Part shown: piece after piece, positions 5,026-64,000 of the stretch | Layout: each line of letters starts with the position of its first letter | Numbering within the stretch: the first letter of the stretch is position 1 | DNA from: Vibrio tapetis subsp. tapetis | GTDB taxonomy: Bacteria > Pseudomonadota > Gammaproteobacteria > Enterobacterales > Vibrionaceae | Assembly (NCBI RefSeq): GCF_900233005.1 | Contig: NZ_LT960612.1 | Location: 620,001 to 684,000 of the forward strand | Length of the DNA: 64,000 nt | Direction: 5' to 3' | Made by a program: the position numbers and the translations under genes | Notes under the pieces: generated by a model | What the model was told of the DNA's origin: nothing | Database searches by the model: none | The model's input: the letters and a program-made list of their open reading frames with translations, nothing else

Positions 5026-6687
5026 TTAATGAGTAAGGCGATACATCGCTTCGACTTTCGTCCCATTGTTCGAGTATTCAAAGGTTTCACAGAGCTCTGA
5101 AACCAAAATAATTCCACGACCATGAACCTCATCATTTGCCTGCTGATGCAACGCGTGATGATCAAAGCCATTGCCATTATGTTCAATGGTCATATGCAAT
5201 TTTCGTTCTGTCGGGTAATAATCAAAAATCAGAATTAGATACGCATTTTCATCGAGCCTTTTAAGGCCCTCTTCCCTTAGTTGGTAATACTTAAAGAAGC
5301 CTTCTTCATCGGATTTAATACTCGACTCTAATCCCAGTAGCCCGTGTTCTAATGCATTGGCTAATAATTCAGAAAGGACCGAGCAAATCAGATCAAGATC
5401 TTGCCCACCACTTATCATACCCGACAAATAACTTCGCACTTCGGCCATTAAAGTTACATCATTGAGAGTCTGCTTTGAAAAACGCAGCGTGGAACTCAAA
5501 GGGACGCTGCCGACAAAAGGCTTTTCATAGTCATGCTCTTTCACGCTTGAATGCAAGACTGGAAAGGTCATTGCCAAGATAGATAGATCATCCGATTTTT
5601 TTCGTACCGCAAAGTCGTTCACAGCGGCGTTTAGGGTCGGAATAACCGACTGACCGCCTTCAAGAACGGTTCGTAACCGTTCTTCGCCAAATTGCTCCCC
5701 TTCAGAGTTAGCCGCCTCTGTTACGCCATCGGTATAACAAACAATTTGTTGGCCAGGCTCAAGCCTTAACCTAAGTAAATTTACTTCAAACTCATCATTA
5801 GCAAGTACCCCTAAAGGCATGTGTTCTGATGTGAGGTTCCTGATTATTTTTCCTTCTTGATCAAGAATATAACCATCAGGGAGACCGCCTCCCCACCACA
5901 TCACATCCTGTCCATTGGAGGATATTTCAAATACGCTCGCGGCAACCATCATGCCTAACGGTAAAAACCTTGCCAGTGAACTGTTGATCTCGGTAACGAT
6001 TTCGCCCAGCGCGAGCCCTTTTTCTGCCATGGAGAAAAAAGCTCTCGATGCTGGGATGGTAGAAATGGCAGCAGGCAGCCCATGCCCTGTGGCATCCGCT
6101 ATCATCACATACGCCCCTCCTTGCGGCCTATCTGCAACCACAATGAGATCGCCATTAAAAACGGTAGAAGGCGTCGATATATAATCGATACTAGGCAGTT
6201 CTCGCGTCATTTCCTCGATTAAGTTGGTGAATATCGACTCCGACATGGCGTAGTCATACTTCACTTGCTCATGGAAATGACTGAGCTCATCTCGTTGCTG
6301 ACTCACTTCGTTGTGCATTTTTGCAATCCGGTAGTGAGCCTGAACTTTAGCCAGCAATGTACTTCGTCCTACCGGCTTTAAGATGAAGTCGTCGCCATAA
6401 AACAGGCATCGACCAAAAGAGTCCCTATCATCCAACACGGTGAGAAAAATAATCGGGATGTGCACGTGCTTAAATTCAGCTCTGATCTCTTTGGCCGTCG
6501 TGAAGCCATCTTTAATCGGCATCATGACATCCATCAAAATAAGATCCGGCAGTTGTTCAGCTTGTTTGAGTGATTCAACCACCCCCTCTCCGCTTTCAAA
6601 TACCTCTATCTCACTGGCAATGCTCAGCAGCATATAGCGGAACATTTCTCGATTTGTTTTCTGGTCATCAACGATAACTACGCGCAT
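5026..6687 (-). CDS. response regulator-PP2C phosphatase-HATPase fusion (HsbR/RsbU-like)
   Basis: A 553-residue three-domain signalling protein. Residues 1-115 are a receiver domain with D7-D8, the phosphoacceptor D53 (LILMDVMMP) and K104. Residues about 145-390 are a SpoIIE/PP2C serine phosphatase (FNGDLIV at 177, ADATGHGLPAA near 198, and a late DD in KKSDDLSI). The C-terminus (about 400-553) is an anti-sigma-type HATPase (ELLANALEHG N box, HGRGIILVSEL). This layout matches Pseudomonas HsbR, which dephosphorylates or phosphorylates a STAS antagonist. The adjacent upstream STAS gene is the obvious partner. Last gene of the chemotaxis operon. Confidence 0.85.
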   Translation of the reverse strand: MRVVIVDDQKTNREMFRYMLLSIASEIEVFESGEGVVESLKQAEQLPDLILMDVMMPIKDGFTTAKEIRAEFKHVHIPIIFLTVLDDRDSFGRCLFYGDDFILKPVGRSTLLAKVQAHYRIAKMHNEVSQQRDELSHFHEQVKYDYAMSESIFTNLIEEMTRELPSIDYISTPSTVFNGDLIVVADRPQGGAYVMIADATGHGLPAAISTIPASRAFFSMAEKGLALGEIVTEINSSLARFLPLGMMVAASVFEISSNGQDVMWWGGGLPDGYILDQEGKIIRNLTSEHMPLGVLANDEFEVNLLRLRLEPGQQIVCYTDGVTEAANSEGEQFGEERLRTVLEGGQSVIPTLNAAVNDFAVRKKSDDLSILAMTFPVLHSSVKEHDYEKPFVGSVPLSSTLRFSKQTLNDVTLMAEVRSYLSGMISGGQDLDLICSVLSELLANALEHGLLGLESSIKSDEEGFFKYYQLREEGLKRLDENAYLILIFDYYPTERKLHMTIEHNGNGFDHHALHQQANDEVHGRGIILVSELCETFEYSNNGTKVEAMYRLTH

Positions 6688-60800: not shown

Positions 60801-61715
60801 TCAATCTTTGCTAGAAAACTTCTCAAGACCCCAAACCAAACCGATACCTGCAAGCATCATGACCACGGCTAGAACAACGTGCGATGGCTCTGAAGTGATA
60901 GATTCAAATTCAAACGGGCTTAAATTGTGCTGAAGCAATGGCACTTCTTCACCTTTGGAGTTTGTACGCCAGCTAACGGTTTCTTTCCACGGCCAGATTT
61001 TAGGCAGTGTACCTAGCATTAAACCAGTCAAAAACATTAACGTGAAGCTGCGGAAGCGCTTTAACAACCACGACAATACGTGGGAAAAGCTCAGTAGACC
61101 TGCCGCACAACCCAGCGCAAATAGCATGAGTACATCAATTTGCAAGCCTTTCGCCGCGGCTAATACAGGAGCATACATGCCTAGCAGCAATAAGATAAAG
61201 CTGCCTGAAATGCCCGGTAAAATCATGGCACAAATCGCAATGGATCCTGCAAAGAACACATTCAAGTTAGTGTCTGACATTTGCAGTGGGCTAAGCACTG
61301 TAATGCCATAAGCAAAGAAAACCCCAAACACAAAGAACAGCCCAGTGAAGAGATCTCGTCTCTCCACTTCTTTTAGTACGTGAATGACCGAGATGATGAT
61401 CAAGCCAAAGAAGAACGACCAAGTTGGAATTGGGCGGGTGACCAATAACCAAGAAATGAGTTTGGCTAAGGTTAGAATACTAGAAATAATGCCGCTAAAG
61501 AGCGTGATTAGAAAAACGCCGTTGATATGAGCAAACGCGGCTTTAAATCCTTCGCGTTTCCAAATACCGAATAAAGAAGGGTTAATACGTCTGATGCTTT
61601 CAAGCAGAGTATCGTAGATGCCAGTAATGAAGGCTATGGTGCCGCCAGAAACACCAGGTACAACATCTGCAGCACCCATGGCAACGCCTTTAAAAAAGGT
61701 TTTCAAAAGATTCAT
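60801..61715 (-). CDS. popT: PopT, undecaprenyl-phosphate translocase (DUF368)
   Basis: A 304-residue DUF368 membrane protein with nine or so hydrophobic helices. The duplicated glycine-rich loops (GAADVVPGVSGGTIAFITG near residue 15 and MILPGISGSFILLLLG later) are the family signature. DUF368 proteins, first shown in V. cholerae, flip undecaprenyl phosphate across the inner membrane. I use the ATG at 61715 (MNLLKTFFKG); an in-frame start at 61844 would extend the protein by 43 residues across the qrr promoter and is unlikely. Confidence 0.88.
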   Translation of the reverse strand: MNLLKTFFKGVAMGAADVVPGVSGGTIAFITGIYDTLLESIRRINPSLFGIWKREGFKAAFAHINGVFLITLFSGIISSILTLAKLISWLLVTRPIPTWSFFFGLIIISVIHVLKEVERRDLFTGLFFVFGVFFAYGITVLSPLQMSDTNLNVFFAGSIAICAMILPGISGSFILLLLGMYAPVLAAAKGLQIDVLMLFALGCAAGLLSFSHVLSWLLKRFRSFTLMFLTGLMLGTLPKIWPWKETVSWRTNSKGEEVPLLQHNLSPFEFESITSEPSHVVLAVVMMLAGIGLVWGLEKFSSKD

Positions 61716-61837: not shown

Positions 61838-61853
61838 TTGGCACGCATACTGC
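61838..61853 (+). promoter_or_regulatory. sigma-54 promoter of qrr copy 1
   Basis: TTGGCACGCATACTGC contains the GG (-24) and GC (-12) elements at correct spacing for sigma-54. No obvious LuxO palindrome is seen upstream; the region to popT is only 120 bases. Confidence 0.85.
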
Positions 61854-61864
61854 TTATATATAAG

Positions 61865-61970
61865 TGACCCTTTTTAAAGCCGAGGGTCACCTAGCCAACT
61901 GACGTTGTTAGTGAACCTATTGTTCACACTATATATCAGCCAATTGCTTCATGCGATTGGCTATTTTTTT
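61865..61970 (+). ncRNA. qrr: Qrr quorum-regulatory sRNA, copy 1
   Basis: A roughly 106-nt RNA gene beginning TGACCC, with the Qrr hairpin GACCC ... GGGTC, the invariant block CTAGCCAACTGACGTTGTTA (targets hapR/luxR and aphA mRNAs), and a terminator stem GCCAATTGC/GCGATTGGC with T run at 61963-61970. Transcribed from a sigma-54 promoter; in other Vibrio, LuxO-P activates qrr at low cell density and Hfq is required for action. Confidence 0.93.
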
Positions 61971-62150
61971 GCCTGTAGAAAATACAAAAATGTAACTTCT
62001 TGTTTTTATTATTTATTTACCAGTCGTTTGATGTTGTTACACTAAAGTGGCCTCTTGTTATAGCTTGATTCTTATTTATTTGGATTACCTATGAAATGAG
62101 ACACTGATCAACTTATATAATACTCAATTACTTTCACATTTTGCATTCAT

Positions 62151-62163
62151 TTGCATTTTGCAA
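62151..62163. promoter_or_regulatory. LuxO binding site upstream of qrr copy 2
   Basis: TTGCATTTTGCAA is a perfect palindrome matching TTGCA-W3-TGCAA, about 75 bases before the second qrr promoter. A partial second repeat (TTGCATTCATTTGCA) precedes it. Confidence 0.8.
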
Positions 62164-62236
62164 ATGCAGTATGCGAATAACCTTGATCGAAACAATGAAA
62201 TACGGGCGCTAAATCACTAAAAAGACCATTGAAAAG

Positions 62237-62252
62237 TTGGCACGCTTTCTGC
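62237..62252 (+). promoter_or_regulatory. sigma-54 promoter of qrr copy 2
   Basis: TTGGCACGCTTTCTGC has the GG and GC elements with correct spacing. Only 7 bases separate the GC from TGACCC, versus 11 in copy 1, so the transcription start may sit a few bases inside the conserved element. Confidence 0.85.
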
Positions 62253-62259
62253 TTATGTA

Positions 62260-62370
62260 TGACCCTTTTTAAAGCCGAGGGTCACCTAGCCAACTGACGT
62301 TGTTAGTGAACCTACTTTGTTCACTTATTTATTACAGCCAATTGCTTCTTATAGCGATTGGCTTTTTTTT
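62260..62370 (+). ncRNA. qrr: Qrr quorum-regulatory sRNA, copy 2
   Basis: The first 53 bases (TGACCC through GTGAACCTA) are identical to copy 1, including the target-pairing block; the 3' part differs in loop and spacer (ACTTTGTTCACTTATTTATT versus TTGTTCACACTATATATC) and ends in GCCAATTGC/GCGATTGGC with eight T. Tandem arrangement with copy 1, 290 bases between the two RNA ends and starts. Strong LuxO site upstream. Confidence 0.93.
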
Positions 62371-62538
62371 GTCCTAAATTCAGGTTAACTCTCAAAGAGT
62401 AGTGCGGAAATGGGTGCAATGTGGGTTATTTTTGTGATATCGATCCAAAAAGATATCTTATTGGGGGATTTGACAATAGCAGTGTGGCGGTGAATCGTTA
62501 GATTGGTCACTTCTATTTTGAATGCTATTAAATCTAAC

Positions 62539-63222
62539 CTATTGAAATGCCCACCAAAATGCTTCATAGAACGCTTCTTTTGCGTCGTGTTTCACGACTA
62601 AACCATTGCTCGAGAGTATTTTGTCAAATGGCCATGTCATGATTTCTTGTACTGATGAACGCAGCTGAGTTTCGTTTTCCAGAGCCATTCGTTCGATGAA
62701 AGGCAGGCGAAATTCTCGGTAAGCTCCGGCCAGTGAGGCAGAAATTCTTTGGCCATAAGGTAGGTGGTTTTGGTTGCCTACAAGATGATCTGCAAGCAAT
62801 AGTGTTTTGCTTTCTACATCGCAAAACACAATTTTTCGCGGTTTGCGTATGCCTAATATAGCGGTTTGAAGTAACTGCCCCTTCCACAAAGGGTAGGTTT
62901 CAGAGCCTAACGCCGCATCAAAGTTTAAATCGGAACGCTTTTGGATCAGTGACGGAGTGGCTAAAAAGTAAGCTTGAGAATAAGCAAGCCACCAATCTGA
63001 TAGGGAATCATGGTAATTGGGAGAAGGCTCTACAATCGCCTTGATGGAGCCAAGTTCAGACAATTCAATTTGAAGTTGTGTTGTGAGCTCGATAGGCGAA
63101 AACACGACAAGGCTACCTTCATTTGTCTTTAAGACAATCATGCGCCTTAAGTGATGGCCTATTAAATCACGGCATGGCATGTCGGCATACCATAGCCTAT
63201 TTGGGTGCCACTCTATCAACAT
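62539..63222 (-). CDS. DUF4336-like protein
   Basis: A 227-residue soluble protein. The order of motifs (YADMPCRDLIGHHLRRMIV, GSLVVFSPIEL, PSPNYHDSLSDWW and KIVFCDVESKTLLLADHLVG) resembles the DUF4336 family, which shares features with metallo-beta-lactamase folds (VFSP/HxxxH). The His of the usual HxHxDH motif is not clear, so hydrolase activity is unproven. Monocistronic on the minus strand. Function unknown. Confidence 0.7.
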   Translation of the reverse strand: MLIEWHPNRLWYADMPCRDLIGHHLRRMIVLKTNEGSLVVFSPIELTTQLQIELSELGSIKAIVEPSPNYHDSLSDWWLAYSQAYFLATPSLIQKRSDLNFDAALGSETYPLWKGQLLQTAILGIRKPRKIVFCDVESKTLLLADHLVGNQNHLPYGQRISASLAGAYREFRLPFIERMALENETQLRSSVQEIMTWPFDKILSSNGLVVKHDAKEAFYEAFWWAFQ

Positions 63223-63376: not shown

Positions 63377-64000
63377 CTAATACCCCATCAATTTTAATAG
63401 GTTTTCTGCTGTTTCAATAGCTTCTTTGCGATTTGCAATATTGAGTTTTTGATATAGATTTCGAATGTGTGTTTTAATGGTTGTACCCGCAACATCTAAC
63501 TCCTGTGCAATTTGTTCATTGCTGAACCCAGAATAGATTAAGCCCAAAACCTGCCATTCGCGCTGTGTGAGTGGGCTGGTTCGGATTAGCTCAGGTATAT
63601 TGGGATGCGTTACGAGTTTTTCTACAAAGCTCTCATCAAAATGTACAGAGCGGCTACGTTGTTTGCTCGAGATGTCTTTCATTAGTTGCTGAGCTCGGTG
63701 ACGTTCTAGGTCATCTAGCCCTGGCTTACTCATTAAGCGTTCCAAAATTTTATCTATGGAAGCCCCATCAATTAAGAAGTTGCCTATCATCCCAGTCTGA
63801 TTGGTTAAGCTTAATGCGAGCTTTAACTGTGCCTCAGCTTCTTCAGTATCACCAAGTTTAACGGCAATCACCGCTTCAACGACTAAGTTACGATTCTGGT
63901 CGGTAAGCAAGTGATGCTTTTTTGCTTCTTGTTGTAGCTTGGCAATCGTGGCTTTCGCGTCGTCACATAACCCTAGTGCAGCTTGAGCTCGGGCGACATT
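63377..64000 (-). CDS. malT: MalT transcriptional activator, C-terminal part
   Basis: The frame is open to the window end (208 codons visible, first residues [20 protein letters not shown]), so the N-terminal ATPase part is outside. The C-terminus has a LuxR-type [42 protein letters not shown] and [19 protein letters not shown]-like repeats lie before it. MalT is the maltotriose-responsive activator of the maltose regulon and would bind the MalT-box pair at 37312-37344. An internal TTG near 63910 is not a genuine start. Confidence 0.9.

What the first reader, a model, noticed from the sequence alone, without database searches (positions are those of the whole stretch)
61838..62370. Tandem pair of qrr quorum-sensing sRNA genes with one strong LuxO site
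Two qrr copies with the same 5' 53 bases lie 290 bases apart, each with its own sigma-54 promoter and terminator. Only copy 2 has a recognisable LuxO palindrome (62151-62163) and it has 7 rather than 11 bases between the -12 element and TGACCC. Different upstream control with identical targets suggests dosage or timing functions; Vibrio qrr genes are usually dispersed singletons.
Basis: partly seen in the sequence, partly recalled or inferred. Interest (0 to 1): 0.85.

Follow-up and report, generated by a model that had tools for sequence, protein, structure and literature searches.

The report
Two quorum-sensing RNAs, one shared switch
In the clam bacterium Vibrio tapetis a quorum-sensing RNA gene was duplicated so that a single control site now lies between the two copies, and in related species only the copy in front of that site survives, suggesting that the master switch LuxO can turn on a gene from behind it.

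Summary
Two intact Qrr sRNA genes (RF00378) lie in tandem at 61865-61970 and 62260-62371 in a Vibrio tapetis chromosome, each with a sigma-54 promoter and terminator, and only one perfect LuxO palindrome (62151-62163).

Comparison changes the interpretation. Copy 2 is the ancestral gene: its linker and LuxO-to-start spacing match single-qrr vibrios. Copy 1 is a duplicate of promoter plus RNA (about 142 bp) placed upstream of the LuxO enhancer, which now lies 286 bp downstream of copy 1's start. In five related genomes copy 2 is gone, copy 1 is the only qrr there, no LuxO-like site lies upstream of it, and the LuxO block persists downstream (+278 to +294) as the best-conserved part of the spacer. 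I infer a shared enhancer in V. tapetis and a purely downstream LuxO enhancer in its relatives. No experiment has tested this.

Copy 2 here has 7 bases between its -12 element and the RNA start; the other 144 of 145 measurable qrr promoters have 11, which hints at decay of copy 2.

Same-strand qrr pairs under 1 kb are rare: 5 of 227 genomes, read by eye. New variant of a known kind.

The parts
60801..61715 (-). Divergent upstream neighbour: polyprenyl-phosphate transporter of the VCA0040/DUF368 family; likely start codon at 61715
   Evidence: Pfam PF04018 339.6 bits, NCBIfam NF052564 482.3 bits; the longer ORF would overlap the copy 1 promoter
61838..61853 (+). Sigma-54 promoter (-24/-12) of copy 1, 11 bases before the RNA start
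61865..61970 (+). Qrr copy 1 (duplicate); no LuxO-like site upstream; terminator stem from 61938; 0 of 106 bases differ from subsp. quintayensis
   Evidence: Rfam RF00378 97.6 bits
62134..62176 (.). LuxO enhancer block: half-site, perfect palindrome 62151-62163, second element 62164-62176 (two mismatches); palindrome at -109 of copy 2 and +286 of copy 1
62237..62252 (+). Sigma-54 promoter of copy 2; only 7 bases to the RNA start
62260..62371 (+). Qrr copy 2 (ancestral unit with its upstream LuxO block)
   Evidence: Rfam RF00378 100.3 bits; linker similarity and spacing
62539..63222 (-). Convergent downstream neighbour, protein of unknown function; bounds the region on the right
   Evidence: no NCBIfam hit, weak PF14234 below its cut-off
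63377..64000 (-). C-terminal part of a MalT-like regulator (runs off the window); completes the conserved neighbourhood
   Evidence: NF003420 310.5 bits (cut-off 537 for the whole protein, only its end is in the window), GerE and TPR_MalT

Best explanation
The locus is a tandem qrr duplication sharing one LuxO enhancer. Ancestrally, one qrr stood downstream of a tandem LuxO site at about -113. In the ancestor of V. tapetis, V. penaeicida, Vibrio sp. S9_S30 and G182, a piece holding only the sigma-54 promoter and RNA (copy 1) was placed between the transporter gene and the LuxO site. Phosphorylated LuxO at low cell density would loop DNA to sigma-54 polymerase at copy 2 from upstream and at copy 1 from downstream (+286), so both make Qrr with the same 5' pairing region. 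In at least two lineages copy 2 was lost and the enhancer was kept as a purely downstream enhancer for copy 1. In the window's strain copy 2 is four bases shorter between -12 and +1, which should shift the start into the first stem or weaken initiation, so copy 1 may be taking over. Shown: the anatomy, the polarity of the duplication, the missing upstream sites and the conservation of the downstream block. Inferred: LuxO binding, looping from downstream, expression of each copy.
For: Of 98 distinct DUF368 neighbourhoods (from 110 held loci: the best 80 of 119 and the best 30 of 226 genomes), 86 hold a qrr; 81 of the 88 qrr genes there have a LuxO-like site upstream, and the 7 that do not are the copy-1-type genes of this clade. 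All 7 have the LuxO block downstream, elements at +278 to +299. On a DUF368 tree of 40 of the 98 distinct sequences the seven are one clade (100/99), with G182 joined to V. tapetis (97/85) and S9_S30 to the penaeicida-like genomes (100/99); on that tree copy 2 was lost at least twice with the enhancer kept. Across four lineages, 27 of 45 columns of the block are identical against 26 of 153 and 8 of 63 on either side. The distance from the transporter start to copy 1 varies from 149 to 335 bp while copy 1 to the first LuxO element varies only from 278 to 286. Apart from the qrr promoters, sigma-54-like matches within 1400 bp lie in the qrr terminator or inside the right-hand coding sequence. 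No Qrr relic was found beyond the block in the three loci searched, L158, L197, L198. LuxO is encoded beside qrr1 in the same genome (NF041946, 852 bits). A downstream position is workable in vibrios: FlrC sites typically lie downstream of the start and act as true enhancers (PMC6504787, passage).
Against: No binding, expression or start-site data exist here. The seven genomes are one clade, so the downstream position arose once; only the retentions are repeated. In V. tapetis the block may be kept for copy 2 alone, and copy 1 could be silent. The absence of change in copy 1 between the subspecies is weak evidence of selection, since the spacer between it and the transporter differs at only 3 of 115 bases. 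No other case of a LuxO enhancer working from downstream is known to me. The first LuxO element sits 6-8 bp farther away in V. tapetis (+286) than in the other five (+278 to +280). In G176 neither downstream element is perfect.
Confidence: 0.66

Rival explanations
1. Copy 1 is activated from upstream by LuxO through degenerate sites, or by another enhancer-binding protein such as a SypG homologue, and the downstream block serves copy 2 only.
For: SypG and LuxO both activate qrr1 of V. fischeri (PMC10162802, abstract and passages). Hallmarks of further regulators upstream of qrr genes are noted in print (PMC8043402, passages).
Against: Best upstream LuxO scores of the 7 clade genes are -4.0 to 0.5 against a median of 19.9 over 148 contexts and a median of -0.6 for random 140-base stretches of the held loci. 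The stretch upstream of copy 1 shows no conserved block beyond that next to the transporter start. Five genomes have no copy 2 for the block to serve.
Confidence: 0.17
2. Copy 1 is a silent or decaying duplicate in V. tapetis; copy 2 is the working gene.
For: Copy 1 has no upstream LuxO site; copy 2 has its enhancer upstream at nearly the usual distance (109 here, 113 in quintayensis).
Against: Copy 1 RNA is unchanged between the two subspecies (0 of 106) while copy 2 differs at 4 of 112 and the spacer between them at 22 of 165, though the spacer before copy 1 also changed little, 3 of 115. Copy 1 keeps the 11-base promoter spacing and copy 2 does not. Relatives keep copy 1 and lose copy 2.
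Confidence: 0.1
3. One reading: two separately controlled qrr genes giving dosage or timing functions.
For: Different promoter details and different enhancer geometry.
Against: No upstream control element is recognisable at copy 1; the enhancer between the genes is the only shared candidate. Extra dosage may still be a result of the shared-enhancer arrangement.
Confidence: 0.07

Closest known systems
Qrr sRNA genes of Vibrio (RF00378), each with an upstream tandem LuxO site and sigma-54 promoter
   Same: RNA family, promoter type, LuxO motif, terminator; LuxO next to qrr1
   Different: Published descriptions place LuxO sites upstream of each qrr (PMC8043402, passages; PMC4740811, section 10, 61 qrr enhancers with loops averaging about 80-120 bp). 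Here the only block is downstream of one copy
Downstream enhancers of FlrC at Vibrio flagellar promoters
   Same: Sigma-54 activator acting from downstream of the start (PMC6504787, passage)
   Different: Different activator and targets; here the block lies beyond the terminator, 286 bp from the start, between two genes
Other close qrr pairs: G194 (342 bp), G215 (893 bp), G018 (275 bp)
   Same: Same-strand neighbouring qrr genes
   Different: In G194 and G215 each copy has its own LuxO-like elements, as after duplication of a whole cassette; no DUF368 gene was found in the 10.5-12 kb taken around these three pairs
Duplication of rsmX or csrB sRNA genes
   Same: Sibling sRNAs arising by duplication (PMC7911923, PMC6262261; starts of abstracts in search listings)
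   Different: Different RNA families; I did not read these papers

Membership tests
Qrr sRNA (RF00378) | Covariance-model match over full length above gathering score | tested here: met
   Both copies, 1-108 of 108, 97.6 and 100.3 bits against 50
Qrr sRNA (RF00378) | Sigma-54 promoter at the start | tested here: met
   Both have GG-N10-GC elements; copy 2 has 7 instead of 11 bases to the start
Qrr sRNA (RF00378) | Rho-independent terminator | tested here: met
   Stems and T runs in both
LuxO-dependent qrr gene | LuxO site about 100 bp upstream of the promoter | tested here: not met
   Copy 1: none (best score 0.5). Copy 2 has one at -109. Copy 1 is therefore filed as a Qrr gene, not as a gene with the usual LuxO enhancer
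LuxO-dependent qrr gene | Expression depends on LuxO and RpoN | not testable with these tools
   No expression data; luxO present; rpoN was not looked for
Downstream sigma-54 enhancer | Activator site downstream, conserved, with no other target promoter nearby | tested here: met
   7 of 7 clade genomes have the block downstream; in the 5 without copy 2 the other sigma-54-like matches within 1400 bp lie inside the right-hand coding sequence
Downstream sigma-54 enhancer | Activates transcription from the downstream position | not testable with these tools
   Needs reporters or in vitro transcription

The most novel reading that the evidence does not exclude
LuxO drives a quorum-sensing RNA gene purely from a downstream enhancer in V. 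penaeicida-like species, Vibrio sp. S9_S30 and G182, and V. tapetis preserves the intermediate stage in which one enhancer between two tandem qrr genes serves both, one from upstream and one from downstream. The enhancer has outlived its original gene twice by serving the duplicate.
Probability: 0.6. Interest if true: 0.72.

Novelty: new variant of a known kind. Interest (0 to 1): 0.6.

Why it matters
Qrr genes are the central switch of Vibrio quorum sensing, and the descriptions I saw place their LuxO sites upstream. A gene duplicated past its own enhancer shows how bacterial enhancers can be shared, inherited by a duplicate and left behind by the original gene, and it gives natural constructs (V. 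tapetis pair, V. penaeicida single) to test position independence of sigma-54 enhancers. It also warns that enhancer searches limited to upstream regions will miss such genes.

Tried and rejected
Chance palindrome: rejected. The 7 clade genomes hold 4 to 14 perfect sites each, so 2e-4 to 9e-4 are expected per 330 bp in the four genomes computed. Copy 2 as a late re-insertion: disfavoured. The linker between LuxO block and promoter (taken from quintayensis) resembles that of single-qrr relatives: 9 of 11 tested had at most 10 of 500 simple shuffles reaching the score (two of the nine, L067 and L172, have the same linker), while L079 and L106 had 135 and 153; and the 113 bp spacing in quintayensis is a common one (55 of 81 at 112-114). 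Hidden second Qrr behind the block in relatives: no Qrr hit even at E up to 10 in L158, L197, L198; the weak hits listed are to unrelated families. Other sigma-54-like matches: those in L165, L166, L168 and L170 lie inside the right-hand coding sequence, those at +242 in L164 and L165 in the terminator of copy 1. Another perfect palindrome of two penaeicida-like genomes: in L194 it lies inside a reading frame; L195 is nearly the same there; neither has a sigma-54-like match or qrr within its 3 kb. G194 as a second shared-enhancer case: first counted as downstream-only, then set aside because each copy has its own LuxO-like elements. Of the 148 contexts, 11 have both an upstream and a weaker downstream site, none of the latter perfect.

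Limits: the 148 contexts are those in held loci (best-scoring Qrr matches and DUF368 loci), not all Qrr matches of the genus, and include near relatives. Pair counts were read by eye; searches used E up to 1e-6, and fragmented assemblies can hide pairs. One assembly carries the four-base shortening, so a sequencing error is not excluded.

Full report
What is there. The window (G000, C2:620001-684000) belongs to Vibrio tapetis or a very near relative: its DUF368 protein is 99% identical to that of V. tapetis subsp. quintayensis CECT 8851. The genome has three contigs; given the lengths of two the third must be 82,266 bases, which matches my recollection of plasmid pVT1 of the type strain (recalled, not from a call). 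The genome holds five Qrr genes, one of them beside luxO. Two form a tandem pair at 61865-61970 and 62260-62371 between a polyprenyl-phosphate transporter gene (60801-61715, minus) and a convergent gene of unknown function (62539-63222, minus) followed by a malT-like gene.

How rare. Of 227 Vibrio genomes, 214 have a Qrr: 16 one, 198 two or more; I listed positions for the 198. Reading by eye, 5 of 227 have a same-strand pair with starts under 1 kb apart: G000 (395), G127 (405), G018 (275), G194 (342) and G215 (893). Of these five only G000 and G127 have the pair beside a DUF368 gene. Six other genomes have neighbours 1.4-3.5 kb apart and G163 has two 2.7 kb apart.

Which copy is old. At the DUF368 locus, 86 of 98 distinct neighbourhoods held a qrr and only the two V. 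tapetis ones hold two. In the others the LuxO site lies most often 112-114 bp before the start (55 of 81 qrr genes with an upstream site). Quintayensis copy 2 has 113, and its linker resembles that of 9 of 11 single-qrr relatives tested. A local alignment runs from the LuxO block through copy 2 at 75.8% identity with Vibrio sp. 99-70-13A1. Copies 1 and 2 of the window share about 142 bases covering promoter and RNA only (118-259 and 517-660 of the intergenic region, 84% identity). So copy 1 reads as an enhancerless duplicate placed upstream of the old enhancer.

What the relatives show. In the five that are not V. tapetis there is one qrr at the locus, no LuxO-like site upstream, and the LuxO block downstream: elements at +278/+292 in the three penaeicida-like genomes, +278/+291 in G182 and +280/+294 in G176, against +286/+299 in both V. 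tapetis. One element of the two is a perfect palindrome in V. tapetis, quintayensis and the penaeicida-like genomes, both in G182, neither in G176 (one mismatch at best). Of 148 distinct qrr contexts in the held loci, 119 had an upstream site only, 11 both, 10 neither and 8 downstream only; the 8 are these seven plus G194, later set aside. By weight matrix, 10 of 148 contexts score under 11 upstream: the seven, two sigma-54-less genes of G163 and one gene of G018. The block is the best-conserved part of the spacer: 15-18 of 30 columns identical in all seven, against 0-10 in the rest beyond the terminator and 11-14 in windows that overlap the edges of the block; 27 of 45 against 26 of 153 and 8 of 63 over four lineages. 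Sigma-54-like matches other than the qrr promoters lie in the copy 1 terminator or the right-hand coding sequence, and no Qrr relic was found behind the block in the three loci searched.

Mechanism. Sigma-54 activators of the NtrC type act at a distance by looping (general knowledge), and in Vibrio the activator FlrC works from sites downstream of the start (PMC6504787, passage). The simplest reading is that LuxO at 62134-62176 serves both genes in V. tapetis and only copy 1 in the relatives. Binding and activity are inferred.

A second oddity. Copy 2 in the window has 7 bases between the -12 GC and the RNA start; 144 of 145 measurable promoters have 11 (3 of 148 had no recognisable promoter). 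At the usual spacing the start would move to 62264, removing four bases of the first stem; that stem alone falls from -8.3 to -2.5 kcal/mol, and it is absent from the best fold of the shortened RNA (-35.8 to -30.2 for the whole). That the first stem protects Qrr from RNase E is recalled, not from a call. Copy 1 RNA is unchanged between the subspecies (0 of 106; copy 2 4 of 112; spacer between them 22 of 165; spacer before copy 1 3 of 115). Together with loss of copy 2 in two other lineages this suggests that copy 2 is on its way out.

In print. LuxO consensus and upstream sites: PMC3352281 (passages). 61 qrr enhancers with tandem LuxO sites, a loop and a promoter: PMC4740811 (passages and section 10). 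LuxO and sigma-54 sites upstream of each qrr: PMC8043402 (passages). LuxO sites about 100 bp upstream: PMC11407668 (passage). The V. tapetis CECT4600 transcriptome reports luxO; the word qrr does not occur in its main text (PMC6313714, passages). In searches no title or start of an abstract among those listed describes a downstream LuxO enhancer or a tandem qrr pair; several lists were cut (30 of 50, 25 of 66, 15 of 167, 10 of 14), and most subscription papers are not in the library.

Noticed in passing
G052, G043, G031, G044, G039, G023, G015 and others: Many genomes carry a convergent pair of qrr genes about 7-8 kb apart (about 5 kb in G080 and G216), a repeated arrangement.
   Followed up: no
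G060, G061, G128, G131, G134, G154, G189, G202, G085: Genomes with 7-9 Qrr matches, above the four or five usually described (recalled), with neighbours 1.4-3.5 kb apart in six of the nine.
   Followed up: partly
L148 (G163:C68), genes at 5432 and 8161, minus strand: Two Qrr-like genes with neither a recognisable sigma-54 promoter nor a LuxO-like site upstream.
   Followed up: partly
L145 (G194:C2), 6095 and 6437, minus strand: A tandem qrr pair that looks like a whole-cassette duplication, each copy with its own degenerate LuxO-like elements.
   Followed up: partly
L087, L091, L094, L096, L074, L177 (DUF368 loci): A LuxO-like site with one mismatch lies about 130-195 bp downstream of the qrr start in addition to the upstream site.
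   Followed up: no
L196 (G117:C6:103190-103202): A perfect LuxO palindrome with no qrr or sigma-54-like match within the 3 kb taken.
   Followed up: no
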